The notes under the pieces were generated by a model that saw nothing but the letters and a program-made list of their open reading frames with translations, searched no databases and was not told where the DNA came from. DNA of 64,000 nt from Methylomonas koyamae (GTDB lineage Bacteria > Pseudomonadota > Gammaproteobacteria > Methylococcales > Methylomonadaceae), in NCBI RefSeq assembly GCF_006483455.1, contig NZ_PPPU01000036.1:31299-95298 (forward strand), in the 5' to 3' direction. The translations under genes and the position numbers were made by a program. Below are positions 31,616 to 57,455 of this stretch, one piece after another (position 1 is the stretch's first letter; every line of letters starts with the position of its first letter).

Positions 31616-31648
31616 CCGAAGCGCCGGATTAGTAATACGACATACCGA

Positions 31649-36815: not shown

Positions 36816-36816
36816 C

Positions 36817-40448: not shown

Positions 40449-40649
40449 TTTGTTTCCTTGTTTTAGAGGTGATTTCAATACCGGCCCTAACTGAAAATCC
40501 CAGGCGCACCGCGCCATTGCTGGCGGAAGCGTTCAACGCTCGGCGCTATATCCGCGCCGGGATTGAACCGGTGTAACTGGCGGCTGGGATAAATTGGCTC
40601 GGCACCGCCGATATTGCCGGGCAAATCGGCGACGGTGCCGGCTGGCGGC

Positions 40650-41911: not shown

Positions 41912-42919
41912 CTAGTCTTCCACCCATCTGAAGCGCAGCGCAGCGCTGGTCAGAAACAGCAGTGTCATTGCCGACAGCGTCAATAACGCCGGTGCAATAT
42001 CGCTTAATCCGGCACCGTCTATCATCACGGCCCGCGCGGCTTGCAGCATGTGGGTCAGCGGAAAAATCAGCGTCAGGTTCTGCAACAGCGCCGGCGCGCC
42101 TTCCAGCGAAAACCAGACCCCGGACAGCAAAATCATCGGCAAGGTCAGCAGGTTCAGGATGCCCAAGGCCAATTCTTCGCTGCTGGTCCTACTCGCCATC
42201 AACAAGCCGAGGCTGATCAGGGTTACCGAACCGAGTACCGCAATCAGCACCAACAGCGCAAAAGCGCCCTGAACTAAAAAATCGAACAAGGCGTGCATCG
42301 CCACAAATTGCAGCACGATCGCCAGCATCAACATCGCCAACCGACTGACGACTTGCGCCGACAGGAATTCGAAGGCGTTGACCGGTGAGGCTTTCAAGCG
42401 TTTAAGCACGCCGTTTTTACGGTATCTGACGATGGTAAAACCGACGCCGAACAAACTGCTGTGCATGATATTAATGGCTAGAATGCCGGGCAAAACCCAG
42501 TCGAGGTAGCGCACCTGCCGCCCGGACACCACTTGCTTTTTCCAGGTCGTAGCTTGATCGCCGGCCAATAGGATTTTCTCCAGCAGATAGCCTTGTGCGG
42601 CACTGTCGTTGATCCAGTAACCGTCTTCCGAGCCACCCTGCACCACCATGTCCAACTGATGATGCTGCAGTTTGGCTAGCGCCTTATCCAGCTCGGGGTA
42701 GTGGATAAATTGCAAATATTGGGTGGTCTTGAATGCGGCGATCTGCGGACTCGCCTCGCCGACCACGCCCACTTTGAACAGCGCGGTCTCCTTGTCGTCG
42801 AATATCGCCGCGATGCCGACGATCAACACCACCGGAAACACGAAATTCCAGACCCAGGTGGCTTTGTCGCGGATCAATTCGATATTGCGGGCTGTTAGCA
42901 ATGCCAAAAAATGCTTCAT
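41912..42919 (-). CDS. ABC-2 type exporter permease
   Basis: 335 residues. Transmembrane helix 1 at about 24-42 (TWVWNFVFPVVLIVGIAAI), an external domain to about residue 150, then five helices (WVLPGILAINIMHSSLFGVG, LAMLMLAIVLQFVAMHALF, GAFALLVLIAVLGSVTLISL, LNLLTLPMILLSGVWF, LLTLSAMTLLFLTSAAL). This is the DrrB/YhhJ-like ABC-2 membrane subunit of drug and natural-product exporters. No separate ATPase gene is present; the ATPase is fused to the C-terminus of the NRPS one base upstream, so the two must work together to export the peptide product. Confidence 0.92.
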   Translation of the reverse strand: MKHFLALLTARNIELIRDKATWVWNFVFPVVLIVGIAAIFDDKETALFKVGVVGEASPQIAAFKTTQYLQFIHYPELDKALAKLQHHQLDMVVQGGSEDGYWINDSAAQGYLLEKILLAGDQATTWKKQVVSGRQVRYLDWVLPGILAINIMHSSLFGVGFTIVRYRKNGVLKRLKASPVNAFEFLSAQVVSRLAMLMLAIVLQFVAMHALFDFLVQGAFALLVLIAVLGSVTLISLGLLMASRTSSEELALGILNLLTLPMILLSGVWFSLEGAPALLQNLTLIFPLTHMLQAARAVMIDGAGLSDIAPALLTLSAMTLLFLTSAALRFRWVED

Positions 42920-42920
42920 C

Positions 42921-45900
42921 TCAACTTCTCAATGAGTGGCCGGTTAATTTAAGAAACAGGTTTTCCAGATTCGGCGTGGCGACCGTCAAGCCTGCCAACG
43001 GCACATTCAGCCGAGTCAGTTGGGCGATCGCCGCTTCCACATTGGCGGTGACGAACTCCACCGTTTCGGCGCCGGCACTCACCGCGAACGGCAAGCCTGG
43101 AAGCTCCGCCAGCCCGCTGGCCCGCGGCAGGCGGATCAGCACGCCGTCGAAATGCTCCTGCAACAGGTTCTCCGGTGTGTCCTGGACGATGACCCGGCCT
43201 TGATCCATGATCGCGATTTCGTCGCAAAGCTGCTCGGCTTCCTCCATGTAATGCGTGGTCAACACAATGGTCTTGCCGCGCTGTTTGATGTCCCGAATCA
43301 AGCTCCAGAAGTTGTGGCGCGATTGCGGGTCCAGACCGGTAGTCGGTTCGTCCAGAAACAAAATGTCCGGATCGTTGATTAAGGCGATGCCCAGCAACAA
43401 GCGTTGCCGCTGGCCGCCGGACAGCTTGCGGGAATCGCGGTTGATATAGTCCCCTAAGGCGCAGGCCTCGATAATGTCGTCGAGCGGCAGACTACGCGGG
43501 TAAAGCTTCTGAAACAGTTGCAAGCATTCCTTCACCGTCAAGGTTTCCGGCAAGGCGGTATGTTGAAACTGAATCCCGATGTGCTGGCTGTAGCCTCTAT
43601 CGATCGGTTTGCCGCGAAACAGGATGTCGCCTTTGCTCGGCTTGAGTATGCCTTCCAGCATTTCCAACGTGGAGGTTTTGCCGGCGCCGTTCGGTCCCAG
43701 CAAGCCGAAGCACGTCCCGGCTTGCAGCTCGAAACTGACCCCGGCAACCGCCGTCGTTTCGCCATAGTGTTTCTCCAAGCCTCTGACGCTCAGCAGACTA
43801 CTAGTCTGGTCCGGCTCGGCCAGCGGCGGCGCGGCGAGCGTTAACGGTTGAGCGGCCGGCTCGGGACTCAGCGCTCGCAACCAAGCCGCGCAATACGGCT
43901 GCTTGACCACCGTGAAATGCTCACCCTTGGCCTTGATGACATTGACGGCTTGAAAATAATCGTTCCACTCGTTGGCCGCCAACCAACCTTTACTGCCTTC
44001 CGCGATCACCAGCGTCACCCGATACGGCAACTTGGCGGTGTAACGGTAACGGGCGGTAATCGACGCCTCGGTCACTTGCCAGATTTTCAGAAAATGCCCG
44101 GCGTCCAGATTCGGAAGGATGTCCGCCAATAATGACGCAAAGCAGTCTTTCCACTCCGCATAGGGCTTGGTTTTTAAAATTTCGGCAATCGCGCCGCGAT
44201 GGGGCTCGGGCGAAATACCGGCGTTAGTCAGCATGAAGTTGCAGAATGCCTTGACCGAGGCCTGGTCCACGCTGCTTTGCCGCAGCAACAAACCGCTATC
44301 GATCAACACCACTTCGCCGATTTCGTAAGCCGAATCTTGCAACTGGCGCAACATTTCGTAGACCACGGTGCCGCCGTAACTGTGCGCGTACAAATTGATC
44401 CGGCCTTGCGGCCAGACGCGTTCGATCTGGGCGATATTGTGCGCGGCCATGTCCTCGACCGTGGTCGCCGGCGGCTCGTCGCTATAGCCTTTCATTTGCA
44501 AGCCGTAAACCGGCCCTTCCCGCTTCAGGCACTCCGCCAGTTCGAAATAGCCGTCGCTCAAGCCGGGCATGCCCGGCACGATAAACGTCGGAATCCCCGA
44601 GCGCAGATTGAGCAAATACGCTGAATTGGTCAGTTTTTCCAGCGGGCGCTCTAGATAATCGGTCAACGCTTTTATCGTCGGATATTTGAAAATATCGGCG
44701 AGATTCAGCGAGCTGTCGGGGAGAATGGCATTGATGCGACTAATCAGTTGCACGGTCAGCAAGGAGTGGCCGCCCAATTCAAAAAAATTGTCGTTCACGC
44801 CGACCCGCTCGATGTTCAACAGCGCCCGCCAAATTTCGGCCAGTTGTTGTTCCAGTTGGCCGCGTGGCGGGCTGAAATCCCCGCGCCCGGCCAGCCAACT
44901 CTCGGCTTGCTGTGCCAGTGCCTTACGGTCGATTTTGCCGCCCGGCGTCATCGGCAGGGTATCGAGTGCCAGCACCGCCAGCGGCACCATGTAGTCGGGC
45001 AAGGTTTGGCGCAGAAAAGCCTTCATGACTTCTTGCTCGGGCGGTTGGCCGGCGTGGGTATAAAACGCCAACAATTGTTTGTTGCCTTGGCGTTCGCTGA
45101 CGATGACGACGGCCAAGCGAACCGCCGGATGCTCGGCCAACGCGCTTTCAACTTCGCCCAATTCCACCCGAAACCCGCGAATCTTGACCTGATGGTCGCG
45201 GCGGCCGATAAAGGCCAGATTGCCGTCGTCCAGCCAGCGCACCAGATCGCCGGTTTTATACAGTTTGTCGGCCCCAAACGGGTTGGCAATGAATTTTTCG
45301 GCGGTCAATTCGGGCTGATTCAGATAGCCGCGAGCGACGCCGGCACCGGCGATGTGCAGTTCGCCCGGCACGCCGATCGGCACCGGTTTGAGTGCGCTGT
45401 CCAGCACATAGACCTGGGTGTTGGCCAGCGGCTTGCCGAGCGGTATCGCTTGGTCGGGATCGTGGGCCGGGTCTATCGGGTGCAGCAACGAAATGACGGT
45501 GGTTTCGGTCGGGCCGTAGGTGTTGATCACCGCGATGTTGGGGTTGCGTTGCCGCCAGGCCCGATACTTTTGCGCTTCGGCTTTTTCGCCGCCGATCACC
45601 ACCCGGCTCAGCGCGGTGTGGCTGAAGTCTTGCTCCACCAGCGTATGCCAATAGGCGGTGGGCAGGTTGATCAGACTGACTCGGTGGCGTTGCAGCAGGC
45701 TTTTTAAGTAAGCCACATCGGTGAAACGCTCGCCGTCCATCATCACCACCGCGCCGCCGCTGAGCAGGGTCGGAAACACTTCCTCGACGAAGATATCGAA
45801 GCTGATCGTCGAAAACTGCAACACCCGGTCGCGCTCGTTGAGACGGTAGGCGGCGATGACGGCCAGGTTGTGATTGACCACGTTGCGGTGTTCGACCATC

Positions 45901-47933
45901 ACCCCTTTGGGCTGACCGGTGGAACCGGAGGTATAGATCACATAGGCCAGATGCTCGGGAGCCGCGCTGGGACGCGGTTGCCCGGTGCTTTGGGCGATCA
46001 ACGGGCAGTCGCTATCCAGCGCCACGGTCTGAATCGCCGGACCGGTACCGATTTCACGCAAGCCTTCGACCAGGCCGGCTTCGGTCAGCAGCAGTTGGGC
46101 GCCGCTGTCCAACAGCAAGACTTTGCTACGTTCGGCGGGGGTATTGGCGTCCAGTGGCAGATAGGCGCCGCCGGCCTTGAGGATGCCCAGCAAGCCGACC
46201 AGCATCAGCGGCGAACGGCGCAAACACACCGCCACGAGGGTATCGGCCTGGACGCCTAACTTTTGCAGATAAACGGCCAGCCGGTCACTTTGCTCGTGCA
46301 GTTCTCGGTAGCTGAGCGAACTCTCCTCGCCGATCACCGCCACCTGTTCCGGGGTTTTCAAGGCTTGGCGGACGAACAGGTCGTGAAGGCAGGCGTCGGA
46401 AACCTGATTGGCGGTCGAGCGGCCCCAGTCGTCCAGTATCTTGCGCTGCTCGTCCGCATCCAGCAAATCGAGTTCCGCGAGCATGCCGTTCGGCGACTCG
46501 ACCAGGTAGCGCATGATGCTGGTCAGATGCTCCGCCATCCGCTGCACCGTCTGCGGCCGATACAGATCGGCGGCGTATTCGATCCCGATCAGCGCATGCT
46601 CGTCTTCGAATTCGTTATAGGTGAAGGTCAACTCGAACTTCGCTTCATTGATCTCGAAATCGAACAAGGGCTCCAGGCGGCAATTGCCGAACGGTAAGCC
46701 GCTGAGCCGAAGCGGGGTGTAGTTGATCAGGACTTGAAACAAGGGGCTGCGGCTTAAATCGCGCTCCGGTTGCAGCAAATCGAAAATCTTCTCGATCGGC
46801 ACCTGCTGGTTTTCCTGGCCTTCGACAATCACGGTGTGAACCTGCTCGAGCAAGGCGTTCACCGTCAAACCGGTTTGTTCCGGCGGGTTAATCCGCATCA
46901 CCACGGTATTGACGAAAAAACCGACCACAGCTTCGATTTCGCGCTGATTGCGGTTGGCCACCGGCATGCCCAAGCAAATGTCGTGTTGGCCGCTGTATTT
47001 TTTTAACAGCAGATAGACCGCGGCCATAAACAAGGTGAACGGAGTGGTTTTGCGCGTTCTGGCCGCTTGTTTAACCAATTTGCCCTGCTCCGAACTCAAC
47101 TCGAACTGGAGGTAAGCGCCGCGCCCGCTGGCGCTGGCCGGACGCGCAAAATCCAACGGCATCTCAAGATTCTGGTAACCGGATAACTGGCGTTGCCAGT
47201 AAGCCAGTTCGCGCGTCAGTTTGGCATCCGTGTGGGTTTCCCGCTCCCAACCGGCATACTGGGCGTAATCGACCGGCAAGGTCGGCAACGCGGGCGGTTT
47301 ACCTTCGACAAACGCGGCGTAGGCTGCCGCCAGATCGTTCAATAACACCCGCATCGACCAGCCGTCGGTCACGATGTGGTGCAAGCACAAGGCCAGGATG
47401 TGGGTTTCCGTCGCCAGGCGCAGCAGCATCGCCCTGAATAGTGCGGAAGTCTCCAGATTGAATGGCTGCTCGATAAAGCTTTGCAGCCGTTGTTTTTGTT
47501 CGCGACGTTGCAGTTCGCCGCTAAACCGGCTGAGATCGTGTTGCTCGATAGCGACTGCCGCCGCCGGCCGGATTCGTTGTAACGGCGTGTTGTCCAGCAC
47601 CGAAAAATTGGTGCGCAAGGCTTCGTGCCGGGCGTAAATAAAATCCAGCGCCTTGGCCAACGCGCCGATATCCAGCGGCCCTTCGATCTTGCCCAAACCC
47701 GGCACATGGTATTGGCCGCCGAAACCCAGCCGATCCAGAAACCACAAGCGCTCCTGCGAAAACGACTGACAGGCGATCTTGTCGCCGGCCAGATAGCTGA
47801 GAACCCCGGCCTTCTCCGCCTTTAGCGCGGACTTCACCGCGTCGGTCAGCAGGCCGGCGCCGGCTTCGACGCACAAATCTCCGGCCGGCGATCCGGTCAA
47901 GCGCGCGCCGTTAGCGATCAACTCGCTCAACAT
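42921..47933 (-). CDS. NRPS (docking-C-A-PCP-TE) fused to an ABC exporter ATPase
   Basis: 1670 residues in one frame. 1-48: TubC-type docking domain. About 52-470: condensation domain, HHIVTDG at about 184. About 500-1010: adenylation domain (YTSGSTGQPKG about 668, YGPTETT, KTGDL). About 1020-1095: carrier, Ser in LGGHSLL about 1056. About 1110-1355: thioesterase, Ser in AHSYGG about 1183, His in GEHFTVV. Then a Pro/Ala linker and, about 1375-1670, a complete ABC ATPase: Walker A GPNGAGKTS (about 1411), LSGGQRQR (about 1501), Walker B ILFLDEPTTGLDP. Specificity pocket read by eye as D-I-E-A-V-G-T-V-I-K; E at the third site occurs in some Lys/Orn pockets, so a basic residue is possible but unproven. 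The permease follows one base later. Last peptide-bond step, release and export are thus in one chain. Confidence 0.93.
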   Translation of the reverse strand: MLSELIANGARLTGSPAGDLCVEAGAGLLTDAVKSALKAEKAGVLSYLAGDKIACQSFSQERLWFLDRLGFGGQYHVPGLGKIEGPLDIGALAKALDFIYARHEALRTNFSVLDNTPLQRIRPAAAVAIEQHDLSRFSGELQRREQKQRLQSFIEQPFNLETSALFRAMLLRLATETHILALCLHHIVTDGWSMRVLLNDLAAAYAAFVEGKPPALPTLPVDYAQYAGWERETHTDAKLTRELAYWQRQLSGYQNLEMPLDFARPASASGRGAYLQFELSSEQGKLVKQAARTRKTTPFTLFMAAVYLLLKKYSGQHDICLGMPVANRNQREIEAVVGFFVNTVVMRINPPEQTGLTVNALLEQVHTVIVEGQENQQVPIEKIFDLLQPERDLSRSPLFQVLINYTPLRLSGLPFGNCRLEPLFDFEINEAKFELTFTYNEFEDEHALIGIEYAADLYRPQTVQRMAEHLTSIMRYLVESPNGMLAELDLLDADEQRKILDDWGRSTANQVSDACLHDLFVRQALKTPEQVAVIGEESSLSYRELHEQSDRLAVYLQKLGVQADTLVAVCLRRSPLMLVGLLGILKAGGAYLPLDANTPAERSKVLLLDSGAQLLLTEAGLVEGLREIGTGPAIQTVALDSDCPLIAQSTGQPRPSAAPEHLAYVIYTSGSTGQPKGVMVEHRNVVNHNLAVIAAYRLNERDRVLQFSTISFDIFVEEVFPTLLSGGAVVMMDGERFTDVAYLKSLLQRHRVSLINLPTAYWHTLVEQDFSHTALSRVVIGGEKAEAQKYRAWRQRNPNIAVINTYGPTETTVISLLHPIDPAHDPDQAIPLGKPLANTQVYVLDSALKPVPIGVPGELHIAGAGVARGYLNQPELTAEKFIANPFGADKLYKTGDLVRWLDDGNLAFIGRRDHQVKIRGFRVELGEVESALAEHPAVRLAVVIVSERQGNKQLLAFYTHAGQPPEQEVMKAFLRQTLPDYMVPLAVLALDTLPMTPGGKIDRKALAQQAESWLAGRGDFSPPRGQLEQQLAEIWRALLNIERVGVNDNFFELGGHSLLTVQLISRINAILPDSSLNLADIFKYPTIKALTDYLERPLEKLTNSAYLLNLRSGIPTFIVPGMPGLSDGYFELAECLKREGPVYGLQMKGYSDEPPATTVEDMAAHNIAQIERVWPQGRINLYAHSYGGTVVYEMLRQLQDSAYEIGEVVLIDSGLLLRQSSVDQASVKAFCNFMLTNAGISPEPHRGAIAEILKTKPYAEWKDCFASLLADILPNLDAGHFLKIWQVTEASITARYRYTAKLPYRVTLVIAEGSKGWLAANEWNDYFQAVNVIKAKGEHFTVVKQPYCAAWLRALSPEPAAQPLTLAAPPLAEPDQTSSLLSVRGLEKHYGETTAVAGVSFELQAGTCFGLLGPNGAGKTSTLEMLEGILKPSKGDILFRGKPIDRGYSQHIGIQFQHTALPETLTVKECLQLFQKLYPRSLPLDDIIEACALGDYINRDSRKLSGGQRQRLLLGIALINDPDILFLDEPTTGLDPQSRHNFWSLIRDIKQRGKTIVLTTHYMEEAEQLCDEIAIMDQGRVIVQDTPENLLQEHFDGVLIRLPRASGLAELPGLPFAVSAGAETVEFVTANVEAAIAQLTRLNVPLAGLTVATPNLENLFLKLTGHSLRS

Positions 47934-48008
47934 GGACTTGCTGCCGCGAATTGGATGAATCCCAGGCTGCGATCAGAAACCGAATCGCACCACCGATGCC
48001 GTATGCCG

Positions 48009-51000
48009 TTAAACAACGAATGCCTCCAGATGTTTCAGATAGTTAGCCAACGAATCTTCGGCCGGGGCGCAGCCGCTGTTCGCAATCGCCACGGCCAGTT
48101 GTTGAATGTCCGCCGCCTCGAACAAAGTACTCAGCGCCAGTTCGACACCCAACGCCGCCTTGGCCCGCAACACGATTTGGATCGCCAGCAAGGAATGGCC
48201 GCCCAACGCGAAAAAATTGTCCTGAATCCCGATCCGGCCGATACCCAATACATCCTGCCAAATGTCGGCCAAAGTGGCCTCGATGGCGTTGCTCGGCGCG
48301 ACGTAACCCGCCTCTGCCGAGCGCTCGACCGGCAGCGCCAGCAACGCTTTGCGATCGACCTTGCCGTTATCGGTCAACGGCATTTGCGCCAACGCCACCC
48401 AGGCGGCAGGCACCATGTAATCGGGCAAGCGCTGGCGCAAATACGCGATCAATTCCGCCGTCTCGAGCGCTATCCCGGCCTGGAAATAGGCAACCAACTG
48501 CTTGCCCCCGGCAAATTCCCGGGCAACGACGACGGCGTGGCGAATGTTCGGATGCAACAGCAAGGCCTGTTCGATTTCGCCGAGCTCGACTCGAAAGCCG
48601 CGAATCTTCACTTGCTGGTCTTGCCGGCCGATGAACAGCAACTGGCCGTCGTCGCGCCAGCGTACCAAGTCGCCGGTCTTGTACAGCCGACCCGGACCGA
48701 AGGGGTTGGCGATGAATTTCTCGGCGGTCAGCTCCGGCTGGTGCAGGTAGCCGCGGGCAACACCGGCGCCGGCAATGTGCAATTCGCCGGGTACGCCGAT
48801 CGGGACCGGTTGCAGGTCGCTGTCCAGGACGTAGACTTGGGTGTTGGCCAGCGGCCGACCCAGCGGGATCGGCTGGTCGGCGGCGACGGCCGCTTCGATG
48901 GGGTACAGCGTGGCGATGACGGTGGTTTCGGTCGGGCCGTAGCTGTTGATGACCCGGATATTCGGGTTGCGTTGCCGCCAGACCCGATACTTTTGCGCTT
49001 CGGCTTTTTCGCCGCCGATCACCACCCGGCTTAGCGCGGTGTCGCTGAAGTCTTGCTCCACCAGCGTATGCCAGTAGGCGGTGGGCAGGTTGATCAGGCT
49101 GACCCGCTGCCGCTGTACCAGGGTTTTCAGGTAGCCGGCGTCGGTAAAGCGTTCGCCGTCCATCATCACCACCGCGCCGCCGCTGAGCAGGGTCGGAAAC
49201 ACTTCTTCGACGAAGATATCGAAGCTGATCGTCGAAAATTGCAGCACCCGATCGCTGCCGCTGAGTTGGTAGGCGGCGATGACGGCCAGGTTGTGATTGA
49301 CGACGTTGCGGTGCTCGACCATGACGCCTTTGGGCCGGCCGCTGGAACCGGAGGTGTAGATGACATAGGCCAGATGCTCGGGACGCGCCAATTGCCGCGG
49401 CGGCTCGTCGATTTGGGCGATCCGCGGCCAGTCCCGGTCCACGGCAACCCGCAGCAGGTCCAGGCCCTGGGTTATCTCGTCGGCACCCGGCTCCAGCGCC
49501 GCTTCGGTCAATATCAGTTTGGCGCCGCTGTCCGCCAGCAGCAGTTTGCCGCGTTCGGTTGGGGTGTTGGCGTCCAGCGGCAGATAGGCGCCGCCGGCCT
49601 TGAGGATACCCAGCAAGCCGACCAGCATCAGCGGCGAACGGCGCAGACACACCGCCACCAGGGTATCGGCCTGGACGCCAAGCTGTTGCAGATAAACGGC
49701 CAGCCGGTCGCTTTGCTGGTGCAGTTCCCGGTAGCTGAGCGAACTCTCCTCGCCGATCACCGCCACCTGTTCCGGGGTTTTCAACGCCTGGCGGACGAAT
49801 AGCTGGTGCAGGCAGACGGCGGGAACCGCGACCGTCTGCGTCGCATTGAACCCGGTCAACAGACGTTGCTTTTCGGCCGCCGGCAGGATTTCGATGGCGC
49901 TGACGGCTTGATCCGGATTGGCAACCACACCGGAAATTAACTGTTTGAAACAGGCCAAATGCCGGACAACGCTGGCATCGTCGAACAAGCTGCGCTTGTA
50001 CTTGATGTTGATTTGCAGGCTGTGCCTGAAATCGTAAATTTCGAGCGTGTAATTGTCCTCGGTTTGCTGAAACACCTCGTACAAAGTCTCGACGCCCTGC
50101 AGCGCGTCGGCGTTATGTAACAGCTCGTCGAAAAAATTCTGGTAGGTGTAGGACACCGGAAACGGGTTTTCCTGGGGATTGGCCAAATGCAAGCCCAAGT
50201 CCGACAACAGCCTGGGAAACGGATAGTGCGCATGGTCCAGGCACTCGAAAAACCGGCGCCGGGCTTGCTGCATCAACTGATTGAAGGAAGCTGCCGGCTG
50301 CACTTGGCACGGTACGACCATGACGTTGATGTAACAACCGATACTGTGTTCGTAGGCCGATTTGGGCCGCCCGCGTACCGGCGTCGTCACCGCCGGCGCC
50401 GCGTGCCGGGTCAGCTTGTATAAAAAGACTTGAAACAGCGCCAGGAACAACACCGCCAAGCTGGTTTTACCACGCGTCGCCAAGCGCTTCAGGGCTGCCA
50501 GCTCGGCACCGTCCAGCCTGAACTTTTGACAACCGATACCGGCGGCCGACAAACTGGCTTGCGGCAAATAATCGTAAGGCAGATTCAAGGTCGCCGCTCG
50601 ATCGGCCAATAATTCACGCCACCAGCGTGCGTCTGCCGCCCCGTCAGCGCCGGCCAGATAGCGCCGTTCCCAATCGACAAAATCCAGAAACGCCAGATCG
50701 GGAGCGCGGCAAACCAAGGTCGCACCGGCCCGTAAGGCGTGATATTTCTGCCAGAACGCGGCGATAAACAAGGCCCCGGAGGTGCCGTCGAACACAATGT
50801 GGTGAATGACGAAATAGACGTAAGTCCCGGCCTCGGCCGCATCGATCGCATACAGCCTGACCGGCGCGTCCTTGGACAAATCGAAAGGCTGCCGCAACAA
50901 TTCCCACAAGCAGGCGTCCAGCACCGCCGCCGATTCCAGTCGCATTTCGTGACAGTTGATACATGCTGCGACCGGCCGAATCCGCTGCACGCAAGCGCCG

Positions 51001-53252
51001 GTCTCGGCGTCGACCTCGAGCGCCACGGTAAGCATGGGGTACTCGGCCAGCATCGCCGCAAGCGCTTGCTGCAATAAGACGGCATCGACGTTGCCTGAGA
51101 CTTTGAACGTCAACGGCACGTTAAACGCGATCGACTCCGGCGCCAGTTGATTGACGTACCACAGACCCTTTTGCACCTCCGACAACGGACCGCAGATAGC
51201 CGCATCGGCCAAACCCGGCGTCTCCCCGCTTGAGCCGGTGCTGCCGGCCGGCGTTTTTTGCTGCAGTTTCAGCGCCAACAGCGCAAAAAACCCGGCAAAG
51301 TCGTCGACACCCAGCACCTGGCTGAATTTGATGTCCAACCCCAGCGACTCGTTCAAACGGCCGACGAACTGCACCACGTCGATGGAATCGAAACCGTAAT
51401 CGATCAGGGAAAGCGACAAGTCGAGCGAGCCCAGCTCCAGCTTAAAAATGTCTTGAACCAACTCGGCTAGCACCGCGGCGCTGGATGGATCGAGCCCCAA
51501 CTCCGCCAAGGGCCGATCGGAGGCCCGCGCTGCGCGCTGGGCGATGCCGCTGGCGGCAACCGCGGCGTCGGCCCGGTATTCCTCCAGAACGACATGGGCG
51601 TTTACCCCGCCGATGGCATAGCTGTTCAGGGCCGCGCGTTTCGGCTGATCGGAACTCGGCCAAGGCCGGCCCTGGCGTTGCAGAATCAACGCATGCCCGG
51701 CGGCCAAATCGCTATTCACCGCATCGAGACCGGCGATACCGGGCAACAGAGCGTGCTCGAAAGCTTTTAACACTTTGATAATCGACGCCATCCCGGAAGC
51801 GGCTTCCGGGTGGCCGATGCTGGGCTTTACGCTGCTGACGTGCCAGCGTTTGCCGGAATCGGCGCTGGCTTGCCGGTAGCTTTGGTCGACAGCGCCCAAT
51901 TCCAACGCATCGGCCATCGGATTGCCGATACCGTGCGCCTCGACGTAATCGATCGAGTCGGCGCTGCAGCCGGCATTGGCGAGGCTCAATCGAATCGCTT
52001 CCTTAAGCCCTTGCGGATTCGGCGCCTCGAACGAATAGCCGCGGCCGCCGTGGTAAACCGCCGATCCTTTGACCACGCCCAAAATGCGGTTGCCATCCTG
52101 CTCGGCATCGGCCAAGGGTTTCAGGATCAACACGCCGCCGCCTTCGCTACGCAGATAACCGTTGGCGGTAGCGCCGAAACTTTTGGTCTGGTTGTCGCGG
52201 CTGAGAATATCGCGGTAAAGTCCCTGTCGCGCCGCCTGAGCGAATTCGTCCGCAGCAATCAGGTTGACGCCGCCGACAATTGCCTGCCGGCATTCCCCGG
52301 CCCGCAAACTTTGCACCGCCCGGTGCAAGGCCAGGTAGACACTGATGCAAAAGGAATTGACCGTCTCGCTCGGCCCTTTCAGGTTCAGCCGAAACGAAAT
52401 TTTGTTGGCAAGCGGAATCCGATACGCCACGTCCGCCGTCGGCGCCGTTTCCCGGCAGCCGATGAAAACCGCGGTCGGAGTGTTCGCCAATCCCGCAAGG
52501 TCGAGCCGATACTCCAGCAAAGCGTCCGCGATACATCGATACAGCAATTGCTCCTGCCGCGGCAAGGCTGCATACTCGGCTTCCGAGATCGGCAATGCCT
52601 CCGGCGCGTGCCGCTTGCCAAGGTCGATTCGGCCATAGGCAAGTTCCGGCGCTTCCGAACGGCCCGAGACCTGCAACGGCACCCCGGACACCACCTTTTG
52701 CCATAACGCAGCGGCATTTTCGGCTTCCGGGAAAATCCCGGCCATGCCGACCACGGCAATCGCCATGGCGGCTTGCGCCGGCTGCGGTCGCGCCACCAAT
52801 GCCGCCGGCACAGTCACAGGCCGGCAGTCCGTAGCCACCGCCGCCAAGTCCAACACCTCCGCAAGCAAATAATCCGCAAGCAAGTCCAAACGCGGATAAT
52901 CGAACAGCACGGTCGACCGCAACGCGCAGTGCAAGCGCTGTTCCAGTTCCACTTTAAAGTCGACCGCCTGCATGGAGTCGGCGCCGAGTTCGCCGAAGTT
53001 CCGGTCGTCGGCGACATCGTCGGGATCGTCCAATTCCAAAAACTCGACCAGCAAACCGCGGATAAAATCGATCAAGATGCGTCGGCGCAAATCCGGCTGC
53101 GCTTGGGCAAGCCGGTCTAACACGCTGAATGCTTCATGCGTTTCGCAGTAGGCGTCCGCAAACTGTATATCCGTCCCCATTGTGGTCTGAATAGAGTCAA
53201 AAACTATGGATAGTTGGCGCAAAATCGATGTGCGGAATCGACGTTCCGTCAA
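48009..53252 (-). CDS. Hybrid PKS-NRPS: ACP-KS-ACP-C-A-PCP
   Basis: 1747 residues from TTG 53252 (overlapping the thioesterase stop); ATG 53180 is an alternative start. About 55-135: carrier, Ser93 in GADSMQAVDF. About 160-560: ketosynthase with Cys in NSFCISVYLALH (about 302), His in EAHGIGNPM (about 435) and SIGHPEAASG (about 480); it resembles trans-AT ketosynthases (YHGGRGYSFEAPNPQG), and no AT, KR or DH is present. About 585-660: second carrier, DYGFDSID. About 690-1120: condensation domain, HHIVFDG about 818. About 1140-1640: adenylation domain, YTSGSSGRPKG about 1300, pocket read as D-I-E-A-V-G-S-V-I-K. About 1650-1720: carrier, LGGHSLL. It is expected to accept the isonitrile acyl chain on its first carrier and pass it to the first amino acid. 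The next synthetase starts 75 bases on. Confidence 0.92.
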   Translation of the reverse strand: MTERRFRTSILRQLSIVFDSIQTTMGTDIQFADAYCETHEAFSVLDRLAQAQPDLRRRILIDFIRGLLVEFLELDDPDDVADDRNFGELGADSMQAVDFKVELEQRLHCALRSTVLFDYPRLDLLADYLLAEVLDLAAVATDCRPVTVPAALVARPQPAQAAMAIAVVGMAGIFPEAENAAALWQKVVSGVPLQVSGRSEAPELAYGRIDLGKRHAPEALPISEAEYAALPRQEQLLYRCIADALLEYRLDLAGLANTPTAVFIGCRETAPTADVAYRIPLANKISFRLNLKGPSETVNSFCISVYLALHRAVQSLRAGECRQAIVGGVNLIAADEFAQAARQGLYRDILSRDNQTKSFGATANGYLRSEGGGVLILKPLADAEQDGNRILGVVKGSAVYHGGRGYSFEAPNPQGLKEAIRLSLANAGCSADSIDYVEAHGIGNPMADALELGAVDQSYRQASADSGKRWHVSSVKPSIGHPEAASGMASIIKVLKAFEHALLPGIAGLDAVNSDLAAGHALILQRQGRPWPSSDQPKRAALNSYAIGGVNAHVVLEEYRADAAVAASGIAQRAARASDRPLAELGLDPSSAAVLAELVQDIFKLELGSLDLSLSLIDYGFDSIDVVQFVGRLNESLGLDIKFSQVLGVDDFAGFFALLALKLQQKTPAGSTGSSGETPGLADAAICGPLSEVQKGLWYVNQLAPESIAFNVPLTFKVSGNVDAVLLQQALAAMLAEYPMLTVALEVDAETGACVQRIRPVAACINCHEMRLESAAVLDACLWELLRQPFDLSKDAPVRLYAIDAAEAGTYVYFVIHHIVFDGTSGALFIAAFWQKYHALRAGATLVCRAPDLAFLDFVDWERRYLAGADGAADARWWRELLADRAATLNLPYDYLPQASLSAAGIGCQKFRLDGAELAALKRLATRGKTSLAVLFLALFQVFLYKLTRHAAPAVTTPVRGRPKSAYEHSIGCYINVMVVPCQVQPAASFNQLMQQARRRFFECLDHAHYPFPRLLSDLGLHLANPQENPFPVSYTYQNFFDELLHNADALQGVETLYEVFQQTEDNYTLEIYDFRHSLQINIKYKRSLFDDASVVRHLACFKQLISGVVANPDQAVSAIEILPAAEKQRLLTGFNATQTVAVPAVCLHQLFVRQALKTPEQVAVIGEESSLSYRELHQQSDRLAVYLQQLGVQADTLVAVCLRRSPLMLVGLLGILKAGGAYLPLDANTPTERGKLLLADSGAKLILTEAALEPGADEITQGLDLLRVAVDRDWPRIAQIDEPPRQLARPEHLAYVIYTSGSSGRPKGVMVEHRNVVNHNLAVIAAYQLSGSDRVLQFSTISFDIFVEEVFPTLLSGGAVVMMDGERFTDAGYLKTLVQRQRVSLINLPTAYWHTLVEQDFSDTALSRVVIGGEKAEAQKYRVWRQRNPNIRVINSYGPTETTVIATLYPIEAAVAADQPIPLGRPLANTQVYVLDSDLQPVPIGVPGELHIAGAGVARGYLHQPELTAEKFIANPFGPGRLYKTGDLVRWRDDGQLLFIGRQDQQVKIRGFRVELGEIEQALLLHPNIRHAVVVAREFAGGKQLVAYFQAGIALETAELIAYLRQRLPDYMVPAAWVALAQMPLTDNGKVDRKALLALPVERSAEAGYVAPSNAIEATLADIWQDVLGIGRIGIQDNFFALGGHSLLAIQIVLRAKAALGVELALSTLFEAADIQQLAVAIANSGCAPAEDSLANYLKHLEAFVV

Positions 53253-53794
53253 GCATCCGGGCGTAACACCGCCAACGTTACCTCGCCTTTGGATTTGCCA
53301 AGCTTGTCGTCGTGAAAATGGCAGAACGTCTTCAAAAACGTGCAGCGAGAGGTTTTCTTCACCAAACTAATGCCGAAGGTTCCGTAAAACCGTTTGGCAT
53401 TAATAAAGCTTTGATAGCTGGAATTTAAATTCGCAATTAGAAAGTTGGACAACTGCTTCTCGAAAAAAGAATCCGGCTCGTATTCGTTTAACTCCGGAAT
53501 TAATCCGTGCTTGATGCAATATCCCAAATGAACATAAGCGATTTGGTTGTAACAAATATTGTATTCGACGGCGTTAAAATGTCCGGTATCGTCGATATAG
53601 CAGGATTCCGGAATCGAAAACTCGCCGTTCATCAACATACCTTGTAATCCCAGCCCTTCTTGCTGCTGAAAATAAGCCTTCTTCAGATATTGGCAGTGCT
53701 GCCGATACGGCGACAATACCTGATTGACGAAGGAACCTTCGATATCGGTTAACGTCAGCGCGTCGCATTCCGCTAATTCAGTGATTGCACTCAT
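53249..53794 (-). CDS. FcoT/ScoD-type thioesterase (isonitrile pathway)
   Basis: 181 residues. Clear resemblance to Rv0098 (FcoT) of M. tuberculosis as I remember it: VLSPYRQHCQYLKKAYF, GEFSIPESCYIDDTGHFNAVE (key residues 58-77) and YNQIAY (82-87) all line up, with the conserved Gly-His-Phe-Asn block at 71-74. In actinobacterial isonitrile pathways this hot-dog-fold enzyme adds glycine to an alpha,beta-unsaturated acyl-ACP and hydrolyses the adduct, giving a beta-(carboxymethylamino) fatty acid for the oxidase. It overlaps both neighbours by 4 and 4 bases (ATGA; TTGA), so it is tightly coupled to an oxidase gene and the megasynthase. Confidence 0.88.
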   Translation of the reverse strand: MSAITELAECDALTLTDIEGSFVNQVLSPYRQHCQYLKKAYFQQQEGLGLQGMLMNGEFSIPESCYIDDTGHFNAVEYNICYNQIAYVHLGYCIKHGLIPELNEYEPDSFFEKQLSNFLIANLNSSYQSFINAKRFYGTFGISLVKKTSRCTFLKTFCHFHDDKLGKSKGEVTLAVLRPDA

Positions 53795-54687
53795 GAGTTT
53801 ATTCCTACATAAAAAGGTAAGTCGTCGTAAATACCGATGCGATAGCTCTTGCTTTGCTCGCCCGGTTTTACCGAAGAGGCTTTATGCACCAGCGGCCGGT
53901 TATCCCAGATAATCAAATCGCCTTCCTCCCAATAATGCGTATGAATATGTTCCGGCTGCTCGGCGAAGTCGAATAAGGCCTGCATTACCTTTTGATTTTC
54001 TTCGTAAGTTAAACCGGCCAATTTGGTGGTAAAACCGCTACTGATATAGAGAATCTTTTCGCCTGTGACCGGATGCTGTATCACCGCCGGATGAATAACC
54101 GGCGGTACTTCGTTATGGATCCGGTCGAGTAACTCGGCCAACGACTTGTCGATATCCGACGCTTGAACTTTGTAACGCAGTTTGCCTTCGTGAACGGCGC
54201 TTGCCGTTTCGACATAGGCTTTTAATTCGGCCGGCAATTTTGCGTATACCGCGGCCATGTCGATATAAGACGTTTCCCGGGCGGATTTCGGGAATACCAA
54301 GGGATAGACCGACGTGAAAGACAGCGGGTGGGGTTCGAACGCGCAATCGGTGTGCCAGTAGCGCCCGGTGCCCGCCACGCCAAGCTTTTTGCCGTCCGCC
54401 TCAATCACGTTGGACGAGACGAAGATCTCGGCATGGTCGGGATGATGGTACTGCGGCTGAAAATACACTTGCGGCCGACCCAGTTTGCGGGTGAACGCCA
54501 CATAACGTTCCGCCGTCAATTCTTGACCGCGCAACACCACCAGTTTGTTTTTATAAATCAACTGCCTTATCAGCGCTAACTCCGGCGCATGGTCAGACAA
54601 TTCGTTAACATCCAATCCAATAATTTCGGCGCCGATATTACCGGGCCTTGCTTCTTTAATTTCCAGGCCTGAAGTTTCAGTAGTCAT
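53791..54687 (-). CDS. ScoE/Rv0097-type isonitrile-forming Fe(II)/2OG oxidase, copy 2
   Basis: 298 residues. TauD-like fold with metal site H112-x-D114 (RYWHTDCAF), distal His268 (WDNRPLVHKAS) and Arg283 for 2-oxoglutarate (SYRIGIYDD). The substrate-side blocks YFQPQYHHPDHAEIFVSS (75-92) and ETSYIDM match Rv0097 (YYEPMYHHEDHPEIFVSS as I recall), which separates this group from taurine dioxygenases. ScoE/Rv0097 converts the CH2-COOH on the amine of a beta-amino fatty acid to an isonitrile with loss of CO2. The stop overlaps the thioesterase start (ATGA). It is a close paralogue of the next gene upstream, mostly identical by eye and colinear without gaps. Confidence 0.9.
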   Translation of the reverse strand: MTTETSGLEIKEARPGNIGAEIIGLDVNELSDHAPELALIRQLIYKNKLVVLRGQELTAERYVAFTRKLGRPQVYFQPQYHHPDHAEIFVSSNVIEADGKKLGVAGTGRYWHTDCAFEPHPLSFTSVYPLVFPKSARETSYIDMAAVYAKLPAELKAYVETASAVHEGKLRYKVQASDIDKSLAELLDRIHNEVPPVIHPAVIQHPVTGEKILYISSGFTTKLAGLTYEENQKVMQALFDFAEQPEHIHTHYWEEGDLIIWDNRPLVHKASSVKPGEQSKSYRIGIYDDLPFYVGINS

Positions 54688-54754
54688 TCGCTTATTCCAA
54701 TTTCAATAATTTCGCCAAAAGTAAACAGTATTACCGGCAAGATATTCTCGAACG

Positions 54755-55651
54755 TCAATTGCCGATACCAACGTAAAAAGGCAAATCGTCGTAAATACCA
54801 ACCCGATACATTTTGCTGGTCTCGCCCGGCTTAACCCCCGAGGCCTTATGAATCACCGAACGGTTATCCCAAATGATTAAATCGCCCTCTTCCCAATAAT
54901 GGGTATGCACGTGCTCCGGACGCTCGATAAAATCGAATAATGCCTTCAGCGCCATTTGATTTTCTTCATGGTCCAGTCCGGCGATTTTTATCGTAAAACC
55001 GCTACTGATATACAACGAGAATTCGCCGGTTACCGGATGTTGAATGACGGCCGGATGTTCGACCGGAGGCACTTCGGCATTGATGCGCTCGAGTAACTCC
55101 GCCAGCGATTTATCGATATCGCTGGCCTGAACCTTATACCTGAGTTGGCCGGCGTGAATATAGGTTTTGGCGTCGACATATTGCTTTAATTGCGCCGGTA
55201 GATTTTTCAACACCTGCACCATATCGATGTACGAAGTTTCCCGCGACATTTTCGGAAATACCAAGGGATAAACCGAGGTAAACGACAAAGGATGTTTTTC
55301 GAAAGCACAATCGGTATGCCAATATTTTCCGGTACCGGACACGCCGATTTTGTTGCCGTTTTGATCCGGCACGTTGGACGAAACAAAAATTTCGGGGTAA
55401 TTCGGATGGTGGTACTGCGGTTGGAAATAAACCTGCGGCCGACCCAGTTTACGGGCGAATGCCACATACCTGGCTTCGTCCAGTTCCTGGTTACGCAACA
55501 CGACCAGTTTATTGCGGTAGATCAGACTGCGAATCATCCCGAGTTCAGGCGCTTCGGCGGACAAGGCGTTTATGTCCAGGCCGCGGATTTCGGCACCGAT
55601 TTTGCCGGGTTTAGACTCGATCACTTCGATTTCGATGGTTTCAACGCTCAT
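54755..55651 (-). CDS. ScoE/Rv0097-type isonitrile-forming Fe(II)/2OG oxidase, copy 1
   Basis: 298 residues, same length and numbering as copy 2: H112, D114 (KYWHTDCAF), H268 (WDNRSVIHKAS), R283 (MYRVGIYDD), and YFQPQYHHPNYPEIFVSS at 75-92. Good ribosome site (AGGAG). Differences from copy 2 are concentrated in residues 94-105, 143-170 and 222-246, which could alter chain-length preference. Only one ScoE is present in the Sco and Rv0097-0101 clusters that I know, so the tandem pair is unusual. Either one per acyl chain or position, or a recent duplication, is possible. Both keep all metal and cosubstrate residues, so neither looks dead. Confidence 0.9.
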   Translation of the reverse strand: MSVETIEIEVIESKPGKIGAEIRGLDINALSAEAPELGMIRSLIYRNKLVVLRNQELDEARYVAFARKLGRPQVYFQPQYHHPNYPEIFVSSNVPDQNGNKIGVSGTGKYWHTDCAFEKHPLSFTSVYPLVFPKMSRETSYIDMVQVLKNLPAQLKQYVDAKTYIHAGQLRYKVQASDIDKSLAELLERINAEVPPVEHPAVIQHPVTGEFSLYISSGFTIKIAGLDHEENQMALKALFDFIERPEHVHTHYWEEGDLIIWDNRSVIHKASGVKPGETSKMYRVGIYDDLPFYVGIGN

Positions 55652-55773
55652 TCAGGCACTCCTATAAGCTCCAGTGATGGTGGTGGGTTGGTACTCCCGG
55701 CAGGTGTCGACTGGCGCACGACGCTACCGATTTGGCCCTGCAATCCAAGTCGGCCGCCAATAGCGGGCGCGGC

Positions 55774-57351
55774 CTAATTGACTTGCCGGGATTGTGCGGT
55801 CCAATAAGGCGTCCTCAATTCCCGCTTCAATATTTTTCCGCTTGGATTCCGAGGCAGCTTTTCCAGAAAGTCGATCGATTTCGGCGCCTTGAAGTCGGCA
55901 ATGCGCTGGCGGGTAAAATTGATCAATTCTCGCGGCTTGATCGTCCAACCCGGTCGCAACACCACAAACGCCTTAACGACTTCGCCCCAACGTTCGTCCG
56001 GGACGCCGATAACCGCCGCCTCGGCGACGCCGTCGTGCTCGCATAGCGCAGCTTCGATTTCGGCCGGATAGATGTTCTCGCCGCCGTAAATGATCATGTC
56101 CTTGAGCCGATCGCAGATAAACAAATAGCCCTGGTCGTCGAGATAACCGGCATCGCCGGTGCGGACCCAACCGTCGACGGACAGACATTCCCGCGTTGCC
56201 GCCGGATTGTTCCAATATCCGACCATATTGGCCGGCGACTTGATGCAGATCTCGCCTATCGCCAGCGGCGGCAGACAACGGCCTTCGGTGTCGATCACCC
56301 GCAGTTCCACCCCCGGCAAAGCCCGGCCGGCAGATTCCAAACGCTTGGGGTTTGCCGGCTCATGGTCCTCGGGGCGTAAGCAGACCGCCATATTGCCGGT
56401 TTCGGTCATGCCGTAGATTTGGAAAAAGCCGCAACCGAACCGCGCCATCGCCTTTTTCAGCAAGGCCGGCGCGATCGGCGAACCGCCGTAGAGAAAGCCC
56501 TTTACCGACGACAAATCCGTGTTATCGCAGGTCGGTTCCGCCAGCGTGGTCTGAATCATGGCCGGCACCATCGGCACTTTGCTGATCCGGTGGCGCTCGA
56601 TCAATTCCAACACTTTCCAGGCCACAAAGGTGTCGATGACAATGCCTTGCGCGCCGGCAATGAATCCCTGTATCGCCCACCAGATCCCGCCCATATGGAA
56701 TTGCGGCAACGATATCAACAGCCGGTCTTCCGGATTCAGATCCATCCAAAGGTCGCCTCGTTCGCGCATGCCCCGCATCAGCCTGAAGAACGCATGATTC
56801 GGCAACTGCACCCCTTTCGGATGGCCGGTGGTACCGCTGGTATACATTTGCACCACCACATCTTCCGGACGAGGCTGCAAAGCCGGCGGCGTTGGCGGAA
56901 ACCGGTCCCGCCAACCCTGAAAGCTTGGGTATTCGCCCAGTTCCGCGTCTAACACGACAATTGTGCGCAGCCGCGGCAGTGCGTGTTTTGCCGCGGCAAC
57001 ACGTTCGAGAAAATCTTTAGCCACAAACACTATTTCGACTTCGCCGTTTTGCAGGATATAAACGCTTTCCGCCGCGGACAGGCGCCAGTTAATCCCGATC
57101 AGCACCGCCCGCGCCTTGGCGCAGCCAAATAAAATTTGATAGCTGTCGATACTGTCCTTGGCCAAAACCGCAACCCGAGCTTGCGGCATAATCCCCTCGG
57201 CGACTAATCCGGCAGCAACTTGATTGGCATGCCGGTCGAACTGGCTAAACGTCGAACGACAGTCTTCGAATACGAAAGCGGTCGCATCGCCACGCTGTTG
57301 CGCTTGCCAAGCCGAGATTCCGGCCAGAGTTTCCGGGGCTGATAACGTCAT
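55774..57351 (-). CDS. Acyl-AMP ligase (FadD10/ScoC-like) loading the isonitrile pathway
   Basis: 525 residues from ATG 57351 (MTLSAPETLAGISAWQAQQRG); a frame 14 codons longer exists but neither start has a strong ribosome site. ANL-superfamily motifs: YTSGTTGHPKG, YGMTETGN, GWVRTGDAGYLDDQGYLFICDR and the catalytic Lys in NPSGKILKREL near the C-terminus. In the isonitrile lipopeptide pathway this enzyme (ScoC, FadD10) activates the fatty acid and loads it on the carrier (ScoB), and later reactivates the isonitrile acid. First gene of the operon. No free-standing carrier gene is present; the N-terminal carrier of the hybrid synthase may replace it. Confidence 0.88.
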   Translation of the reverse strand: MTLSAPETLAGISAWQAQQRGDATAFVFEDCRSTFSQFDRHANQVAAGLVAEGIMPQARVAVLAKDSIDSYQILFGCAKARAVLIGINWRLSAAESVYILQNGEVEIVFVAKDFLERVAAAKHALPRLRTIVVLDAELGEYPSFQGWRDRFPPTPPALQPRPEDVVVQMYTSGTTGHPKGVQLPNHAFFRLMRGMRERGDLWMDLNPEDRLLISLPQFHMGGIWWAIQGFIAGAQGIVIDTFVAWKVLELIERHRISKVPMVPAMIQTTLAEPTCDNTDLSSVKGFLYGGSPIAPALLKKAMARFGCGFFQIYGMTETGNMAVCLRPEDHEPANPKRLESAGRALPGVELRVIDTEGRCLPPLAIGEICIKSPANMVGYWNNPAATRECLSVDGWVRTGDAGYLDDQGYLFICDRLKDMIIYGGENIYPAEIEAALCEHDGVAEAAVIGVPDERWGEVVKAFVVLRPGWTIKPRELINFTRQRIADFKAPKSIDFLEKLPRNPSGKILKRELRTPYWTAQSRQVN

Positions 57352-57455
57352 TGTGCTTGCTAGAGATAAGTATGATGCTTTTACATAAAGCAACTAGAAT
57401 GCCACCCGGAATTTCTGTAGCAGCATAAATCGGCACATAAAACTCAATATATTGA

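What the first reader, a model, noticed from the sequence alone, without database searches (positions are those of the whole stretch)
41912..57351. Isonitrile-lipopeptide-type gene cluster in a proteobacterial setting
The sequence shows, in one minus-strand operon, an acyl-AMP ligase, two oxidases with the Rv0097/ScoE blocks (YFQPQYHH..., WHTD, WDNR..HKAS), an FcoT/ScoD-type protein (GHFNAVE, YNQIAY) and NRPS modules. Known pathway logic (ScoA-E, Rv0097-Rv0101): ligase loads the fatty acid, ScoD-type enzyme adds glycine and releases, ScoE-type oxidase turns the glycyl unit into an isonitrile, NRPS attaches it to an amino acid. The families are those of actinobacterial isonitrile lipopeptides, but the megasynthase design (PKS-containing, two NRPS modules, built-in exporter ATPase) differs from those I know. 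Novelty in this lineage is inference; I could not search.
Basis: partly seen in the sequence, partly recalled or inferred. Interest (0 to 1): 0.95.

Follow-up and report, generated by a model that had tools for sequence, protein, structure and literature searches.

The report
Methanotroph isonitrile metallophore gene cluster
A methane-eating bacterium carries a seven-gene operon with the enzyme set known from isonitrile lipopeptides, predicted to make and export an isonitrile compound that likely grabs copper, which would matter because only 1 of 311 genomes searched in its order shows a gene for methanobactin, the copper scavenger known from other methane eaters.

Summary
Observation confirmed: window 41912-57393 (minus strand) holds a ligase, two ScoE-type oxidases, an FcoT/ScoD-type enzyme, ACP-KS-ACP-C-A-PCP, C-A-PCP-TE-ABC and an ABC-2 permease. 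The oxidases group with ScoE/Rv0097 against TauD (100/99) and fold like ScoE (TM 0.90) but form a second class: iron and substrate residues kept, ScoE His299 and Arg195 lost. FcoT occurs in 15 of 311 Methylococcales genomes; the KS-hybrid layout recurs in Bacteroidota, Aquisphaera and Marinibactrum. I read this as a Gram-negative isonitrile metallophore system, most likely for copper (inferred). Against: the window's own genome has neither this hydratase nor a close copy of this receptor; product, metal binding and regulation are untested. New variant of a known kind: oxidases and FcoT miss the NCBIfam equivalog cut-offs.

The parts
55774..57393 (-). acyl-AMP ligase (AMP-binding + C domain); predicted to load the enoic, later the isocyano, acid onto the N-terminal ACP
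   Evidence: PF00501 279.9 bits, PF13193 86.3 bits; PDB relatives include FadD13 and FadD10
54755..55651 (-). oxidase A, second-class ScoE-type Fe/alpha-KG oxidase
   Evidence: NF049937 261.2 bits, cut-off 400; PDB ScoE E 2.3e-64; residues; trees
53791..54687 (-). oxidase B, second-class ScoE-type Fe/alpha-KG oxidase
   Evidence: NF049937 281.4 bits, cut-off 400; PDB SfaA/ScoE E 6e-66 and 1e-65; model pLDDT 93.2, best fold match ScoE TMq 0.90
53249..53794 (-). FcoT/ScoD-type enzyme, predicted to add glycine to enoyl-ACP and release the adduct
   Evidence: PF10862 162.9 bits; NF049938 136.5 bits, cut-off 250; PDB 5wsy E 3e-27, Rv0098 E 1e-18
48009..53252 (-). PKS-NRPS megasynthase ACP-KS-ACP-C-A-PCP, 1747 aa, no AT match
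   Evidence: Pfam; sequence
52848..53069 (-). N-terminal ACP (motif GADSM), the likely counterpart of the free-standing ACP of known clusters; borders approximate
   Evidence: (three PP-binding stretches)
51729..52763 (-). ketosynthase with Cys-His-His kept
51288..51500 (-). second ACP (GFDSI); borders approximate
49857..51188 (-). condensation domain 1 (HHIVFDG)
48360..49796 (-). adenylation domain 1; pocket residues read by eye as D-I-E-N-V-G-S-V-I
48093..48275 (-). PCP 1 (GGHSL)
42921..47933 (-). NRPS C-A-PCP-TE fused to a DrrA-type ABC ATPase, 1670 aa
   Evidence: Pfam, TIGR01188 225 bits at 1388-1665, below its cut-off 312; fusion survey
44934..46373 (-). adenylation domain 2; pocket residues read by eye as D-I-E-N-V-G-T-V-I; 78.6% identical to A domain 1 while the C domains share 24.9%
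43884..44585 (-). type I thioesterase (AHSYGG); Pfam matches its first half only, end approximate
42939..43772 (-). ABC ATPase with Walker A, LSGGQ and Walker B
41912..42919 (-). ABC-2 permease, predicted partner of the fused ATPase
   Evidence: PF12698 92.8 bits

Best explanation
This Methylomonas operon encodes a ligase, two ScoE-type oxidases, an FcoT/ScoD-type enzyme, two PKS/NRPS megasynthases and an ABC transporter, and is predicted to build and secrete an isonitrile-bearing lipopeptide that likely serves as a copper-binding metallophore. Proposed steps, all inferred from family chemistry: the ligase loads an enoic acid on the N-terminal ACP; the FcoT enzyme adds glycine across the double bond and releases the adduct; one or both oxidases turn the N-carboxymethyl group into the isonitrile; the ligase loads the isocyano acid again; the KS passes it on, with or without one malonyl extension from a trans AT, to the second ACP; two NRPS modules add two similar, probably cationic (ornithine- or lysine-like) residues; the TE releases the product and the fused ABC ATPase with the permease exports it. 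In relatives a TonB receptor and a Tat-signal isonitrile hydratase would bring the loaded molecule in and destroy the ligand in the periplasm to free the metal. Shown: gene content, families, phylogeny, kept and lost residues, recurrence and linkage. Not shown: product, metal, regulation, and any uptake partner in the window's own genome.
For: Family and fold; tree against TauD 100/99. In 80 oxidase rows (some redundant) the Fe residues, Arg157, Lys193, Asp198 and Arg310 are kept in 80 of 80, Tyr96 and Tyr101 in 79 of 79 (L004 is cut there). The order ligase-oxidase-FcoT-[ACP-KS-ACP-C-A-PCP...] recurs in Methylobacter, Bacteroidota and Aquisphaera loci. An exporter goes with the Methylococcales clusters: fused ABC plus permease in the window, G166, G167, G025 and G223; MFS and HlyD genes in six Methylobacter-type loci, five of them with an OEP gene. 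Isonitrile link: the DJ-1/PfpI neighbour is an isocyanide hydratase homologue (PDB 3non E 1.4e-53), Asp17 and Cys101 kept in 17 of 17; it lies behind the permease of the operon in G025 (L101:3731-4564) and with a TonB gene beside the cluster in L010. ICH ortholog in 10 of 15 FcoT-positive against 13 of 296 FcoT-negative genomes, Fisher p 1.4e-9; by genus 6 of 7 against 5 of 43, p 1.8e-4. TonB receptor directly upstream of ICH in 21 of 23. TonB genes lie in 17 of the 80 named loci, 13 of them cyanobacterial; of three scanned, one is above the siderophore-receptor cut-off. A P-type ATPase annotated as heavy-metal and a PCu(A)C chaperone flank a Streptomyces cluster. Diisonitriles are copper chalkophores in mycobacteria (PMC9600254 abstract, PMC12140626 passages). 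MbnC is in 1 of 311 Methylococcales genomes and in none of the 15 FcoT-positive.
Against: The window's genome and its same-species relative G167 have no ICH ortholog, and the best TonB receptors of the window's genome are 31-33% identical; G165 and G166 (35% matches only) and G223 (none) lack the ICH ortholog too. By the probes used no TonB gene lies near the cluster in 14 of the 15 FcoT-positive genomes, three of which were read on contigs under 10 kb. The oxidases lack His299 and have Gln for Arg195; PMC7949033 (passages) reports no detected product for ScoE with Arg195 replaced and loss of activity for Arg157 and His299 variants. The distribution is patchy (15 of 311), so the system is not a general copper route of the order. 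The 10/15 association is corrected for relatedness only by the genus count, and several FcoT-negative genomes with ICH are incomplete (down to 63%), so an FcoT gene could be missed there. No gene for making the enoyl substrate was recognised in the operon.
Confidence: 0.6

Rival explanations
1. The operon makes an isonitrile lipopeptide whose main role is antagonism of competitors, and the TonB-hydratase pair in relatives is detoxification or scavenging rather than metal uptake.
For: ICH is described as a likely defence, perhaps self-protection, enzyme (PMC10792529 and PMC10971408, passages); exporter genes at the clusters; ICH-TonB pairs also occur in 13 FcoT-negative genomes.
Against: A TonB receptor with ECF sigma and FecR genes upstream is an uptake design; diisonitriles of mycobacteria are chalkophores (PMC9600254, abstract).
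Confidence: 0.2
2. The product is an isonitrile metallophore for another metal such as zinc, nickel or iron.
For: TonB receptors at related loci score best on siderophore-type models; a zinc role has been proposed for the mycobacterial compound (recalled).
Against: P-type ATPase and PCu(A)C genes flank a Streptomyces cluster; copper but not zinc starvation induces and requires the mycobacterial operon (PMC9600254, abstract).
Confidence: 0.15
3. The second-class oxidases do not finish the isonitrile and the operon yields another N-modified lipopeptide (for example an N-hydroxy, imine, formamide or beta-amino product).
For: Loss of His299 and Arg195 in these oxidases and the effect of such losses in ScoE (PMC7949033, passages); scores below the NF049937 equivalog cut-off.
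Against: All Fe and substrate residues kept; the isonitrile hydratase homologue is linked to second-class clusters; both oxidases retained at about 90% identity between species.
Confidence: 0.12
4. The ICH-FcoT association reflects shared ancestry or general secondary-metabolite load, not function.
For: Two genera (g10, g11) supply 6 of the 10 genomes that have both.
Against: Genus-level p 1.8e-4; physical linkage in genomes of two families of the order (G085, G025) and DJ-1/PfpI genes at Bacteroidota and Planctomycetota clusters.
Confidence: 0.1

Closest known systems
Actinobacterial isonitrile lipopeptide clusters (ScoA-E of Streptomyces coeruleorubidus, SF2768 of S. thioluteus, the mycobacterial nrp operon; gene layouts recalled, mycobacterial operon also in PMC12140626 passages)
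   Same: Ligase, ScoE-type oxidase, ScoD/FcoT enzyme, ACP and NRPS together.
   Different: ACP fused into the megasynthase; a KS between two ACPs; TE release; ABC ATPase fused to the NRPS; near-identical A domains; two oxidases; second-class oxidase residues.
ScoE / SfaA / Rv0097 oxidases
   Same: Same side of the tree against TauD, same fold (TM 0.90 to ScoE), same Fe and substrate residues.
   Different: 33-38% identity; His299 to Gly/Ser, Arg195 to Gln, Tyr97 to Phe; below the NF049937 cut-off.
Methanobactin systems of methanotrophs
   Same: Proposed job: secreted copper ligand, TonB uptake in relatives.
   Different: Not ribosomal; MbnC in none of the 15 genomes, in 1 of 311 of the order.
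Isonitrile hydratase acting on diisonitriles in Streptomyces thioluteus (only the title seen, in the reference list of PMC10971408)
   Same: Same enzyme family together with an isonitrile metallophore.
   Different: Here with Tat- or lipoprotein-like N termini and a TonB partner, so predicted periplasmic; the S. clavifer copy (L114) shows no signal.
FcoT-type enzymes of beta-amino-acid macrolactam clusters (CmiS1 type, recalled)
   Same: FcoT enzyme beside PKS genes.
   Different: Loci such as L058, L059 and L060 show FcoT and KS but no ScoE-type oxidase; the window has two.

Membership tests
ScoE/Rv0097 isonitrile-forming oxidase | Fe-binding His-X-Asp...His | tested here: met
   both oxidases
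ScoE/Rv0097 isonitrile-forming oxidase | substrate residues Tyr96, Tyr101, Lys193, Arg310 and alpha-KG residue Arg157 | tested here: met
ScoE/Rv0097 isonitrile-forming oxidase | inducible alpha-KG residue His299, and Arg195 | tested here: not met
   Gly or Ser, and Gln, in the window; no His299 in 51 of 51 second-class rows; His in 22 and Tyr in 7 of 29 first-class rows
ScoE/Rv0097 isonitrile-forming oxidase | phylogeny with ScoE, not TauD | tested here: met
   100/99 with four TauD-type rows (three so annotated), tool warned of long outgroup branches
ScoE/Rv0097 isonitrile-forming oxidase | NF049937 equivalog cut-off (400 bits) | tested here: not met
   281 and 261 bits
ScoE/Rv0097 isonitrile-forming oxidase | isonitrile formation in vitro | not testable with these tools
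   -
FcoT/ScoD enoyl-ACP glycyltransferase | FcoT domain over the Pfam cut-off | tested here: met
   162.9 bits, cut-off 27
FcoT/ScoD enoyl-ACP glycyltransferase | NF049938 equivalog cut-off (250 bits) | tested here: not met
   136.5 bits
Isonitrile lipopeptide biosynthetic cluster | ligase + ScoE-type + ScoD-type + ACP + NRPS together | tested here: met
Isonitrile lipopeptide biosynthetic cluster | isonitrile lipopeptide product | not testable with these tools
Chalkophore system | copper-linked or uptake genes with the cluster | tested here: inconclusive
   seen in relatives, not in the window's genome
Chalkophore system | Cu(I) binding and copper-repressed expression | not testable with these tools
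   -
Isocyanide hydratase (partner gene of relatives) | Cys101 nucleophile and Asp17 | tested here: met
   17 of 17
Methanobactin | MbnC gene | tested here: not met
   0 of 15 FcoT-positive genomes; the model rings in 1 of 311

The most novel reading that the evidence does not exclude
Gram-negative bacteria run a complete isonitrile chalkophore cycle: a PKS-NRPS operon makes and exports the ligand, an ECF/FecR-controlled TonB receptor brings the copper complex in, and a periplasmic isonitrile hydratase destroys the ligand to unload copper where pMMO is metallated. Methylococcales that lack methanobactin use it, and genomes with only the receptor-hydratase pair steal the compound from producers.
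Probability: 0.35. Interest if true: 0.9.

Novelty: new variant of a known kind. Interest (0 to 1): 0.75.

Why it matters
Methanotrophs need much copper for pMMO, and methanobactin may be confined to a few type II strains; the authors of PMC4688376 (passage) considered a novel chalkophore, or ample copper at the vent, for a gammaproteobacterial methanotroph without methanobactin genes. This operon names concrete genes to delete and a compound class to look for. It also gives isonitrile hydratase a possible physiological job (metal release in the periplasm), extends ScoE chemistry to a second enzyme class that would have to bind alpha-KG without His299, and offers an unusual natural fusion of NRPS, thioesterase and transporter ATPase.

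Tried and rejected
Taurine or alkylsulfatase dioxygenase: rejected by scores, tree and fold. PF05114 as a methanobactin marker: rang in 15 of 15 genomes, too broad, replaced by MbnC TIGR04160. Beta-amino-acid (CmiS1-type) pathway: disfavoured because ScoE-type oxidases are present. Copper genes beside the TonB-ICH pairs: 13 neighbouring genes were scanned (10, 3); sigma factors, FecR, TonB, PepSY, penicillin amidase, a MutY-like, an AsmA, a phosphoketolase, a DHH and a PF05114 gene turned up and two had no match; apart from the PF05114 gene none suggests copper. pMMO presence (PF02461 in 14 of 15, the miss 77% complete) says little by itself. The KS role (extension or mere transfer) could not be decided. 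Ten paper searches were made. No title or abstract start in the lists points to such a cluster in methanotrophs or Bacteroidota; most of these papers were not opened, one search showed 20 of 870, one search was swamped by a general term (12 of 8,989 shown), and the library holds open-licence PMC only, so absence is weak. Oxidase A against B: both lie in a 16-row Methylococcales set (95, quick tree), but neither tree makes them sisters, so the order of duplication is open. first read the G025 hydratase one base out of frame; one search corrected it.
Full report
Setting. The window lies at C29:31299-95298 of a 4.54 Mb genome in 89 contigs. So this is a Methylomonas, order Methylococcales.

What is there. 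Seven minus-strand ORFs follow each other, some overlapping, the widest gap about 120 bases: ligase, oxidase A, oxidase B, FcoT, a 1747-residue ACP-KS-ACP-C-A-PCP protein, a 1670-residue C-A-PCP-TE-ABC protein, and an ABC-2 permease. Motifs of the C, ACP/PCP, TE and ABC domains are present. The KS Cys-His-His is kept in the 23 rows of this KS type (some redundant), though its surroundings (in the window NSFCISVYL, EAHGIGN, KPSIGHPE) differ from the usual PKS motifs. Pfam shows no AT domain, so an extension by this KS would need malonyl-ACP made in trans; whether it extends or only passes the chain on is open.

Family tests. The oxidases score 281 and 261 bits on the ScoE model against about 125 on taurine dioxygenase. 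Against four TauD-type rows the 34 ScoE-type rows stand together at 100/99, with a tool warning about long outgroup branches. An AlphaFold2 model of oxidase B (mean pLDDT 93.2) matches ScoE best (E 3.8e-36, TM 0.90), then SfaA, Rv0097 and MmaE, then TauD. Mapped on ScoE numbering from PMC7949033 (passages), the Fe ligands, Arg157, Lys193, Asp198 and Arg310 are kept in 80 of 80 rows and Tyr96 and Tyr101 in 79 of 79; His299 is in none of 51 second-class rows, and Arg195 is Gln or Thr in most of them. The 29 first-class rows have His299 in 22 and Tyr in 7; ScoE, SfaA and Rv0097 belong to this class. The split speaks for the same substrate and a changed alpha-KG site, and it is also the best argument against assuming the same reaction. 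FcoT is clear by Pfam but below the ScoD equivalog cut-off.

Recurrence. One scan of named genomes gave 80 loci, the best of 117 confirmed. The order ligase-oxidase-FcoT-ACP-KS-ACP-C-A-PCP recurs in Methylobacter, Methylocucumis, Microscilla, Pedobacter, Aquimarina, a Cytophagaceae and Aquisphaera; Marinibactrum has it with the ligase on the other strand, Rhodopirellula without the KS. In Methylococcales 15 of 311 genomes have FcoT, in 7 of 50 genera. Two oxidases were seen only in Methylomonas (window, G167, G166, L003). The NRPS-TE-ABC fusion is in the window, G166, G167, G025 and, broken over frames in a draft contig, G223. In a protein search with that region 11 of the 120 listed hits (of 1375) had the full fusion, two of them named, both Methylomonas; one Xanthomonas protein joins NRPS and ABC without a TE. 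Methylobacter-type clusters lack the fusion and have MFS and HlyD genes, five of six with an OEP gene as well. The product is therefore very probably secreted (inference).

Product hints. The two A domains are 78.6% identical overall and 95-97% at their N-terminal part, while the C domains share 24.9%. In G025 and G223 module 1 has a different A domain, so in Methylomonas module 1 seems to have received a copy of the module 2 A domain (inference). Pocket residues D-I-E-N-V-G-(S/T)-V-I, read by eye, carry an acidic residue as expected for a cationic amino acid (inference, recalled codes); a synthetic analogue of the mycobacterial compound contains ornithine (PMC12140626, passages).

Partner genes. 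DJ-1/PfpI proteins turned up at clusters of Pedobacter and a Cytophagaceae, each with a TonB receptor, of Ca. Methylobacter oryzae directly behind a TonB receptor, and of Aquimarina muelleri, Rhodopirellula and Aquisphaera. The methanotroph protein matches isonitrile hydratase 3non at E 1.4e-53; Asp17 and Cys101 are kept in 17 of 17. Of 11 Methylococcales copies read, 10 show RRxF in a Tat-like N terminus and in the eleventh (G084) the printed part stops at RR; the Bacteroidota and Planctomycetota copies have lipoprotein-, Sec- or Tat-like starts, the Streptomyces copy none (judged by eye, no signal predictor). Across the order 23 of 311 genomes have this ortholog (E below 1e-60; the next, G171, is at 6e-52). 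In 21 of 23 a TonB receptor lies directly upstream on the same strand (in G291 it is only 39% identical to the probe); in G093 both genes are cut by contig ends; in G025 the hydratase lies behind the permease of the isonitrile operon. ECF sigma and FecR genes stand before the receptor in G081, with homologues at eight of the nine other loci read. FcoT-positive genomes have the hydratase in 10 of 15, FcoT-negative in 13 of 296 (p 1.4e-9; by genus 6 of 7 against 5 of 43, p 1.8e-4). The 13 receptor-hydratase genomes without a detected FcoT, some of them incomplete, could be users of foreign compound (inference).

Limits. The window's genome has no such hydratase and no close copy of the receptor: all 22 candidates were scored, best 31-33% identity. 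For this species the copper role rests on analogy. MbnC was found in 1 of 311 genomes, so methanobactin does not explain copper uptake in most of the order; but 15 of 311 is too patchy for the isonitrile operon to be a general answer either.

Verdict. The biosynthetic reading is strong (about 0.8 that an isonitrile is made), the copper reading moderate (about 0.5), the full uptake-and-unloading cycle speculative but testable (0.35).

Noticed in passing
window 29177-39422: Defence island next to the operon: type I restriction-modification genes, a PDC-S02 gene and a Septu-type PtuA/PtuB pair.
   Followed up: partly
window 39663-40517, 40650-41408, 59251-60219: Proteins with signal-like starts and PEP-CTERM-like ends flank the operon on both sides (by eye); the last matches NF033554 below its cut-off.
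   Followed up: no
window 48360-49796 and 44934-46373: The two A domains look like a copy of one onto the other, with the C domains far apart; G025 and G223 keep a different module 1 A domain.
   Followed up: partly
L114 (Streptomyces clavifer plasmid): Isonitrile-type cluster with a heavy-metal P-type ATPase, PCu(A)C copper chaperone and DJ-1/PfpI gene upstream and an iron-type ABC importer downstream.
   Followed up: no
L113 (Halotia branconii plasmid) and 13 cyanobacterial loci: Cyanobacterial FcoT/ScoE-type clusters with a TonB receptor; cyanobacteria hold both oxidase classes.
   Followed up: no
L142:15987-16844 (G085): A PF05114 (MbnB/TglH/ChrH) gene about 8.5 kb from the TonB-ICH pair of Ca. 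Methylobacter oryzae.
   Followed up: no
L018 and L019: Aquimarina aquimarini holds two different FcoT/oxidase clusters.
   Followed up: no
L053, L079, L055: First-class ScoE-type oxidases with FcoT also occur in an Alteromonadaceae, a Burkholderia and another gammaproteobacterium.
   Followed up: no
L137 (G197) and L141 (G254): Behind ICH lie two conserved genes (345 and 411 aa in L137, no Pfam match there) and a second TonB receptor.
   Followed up: no
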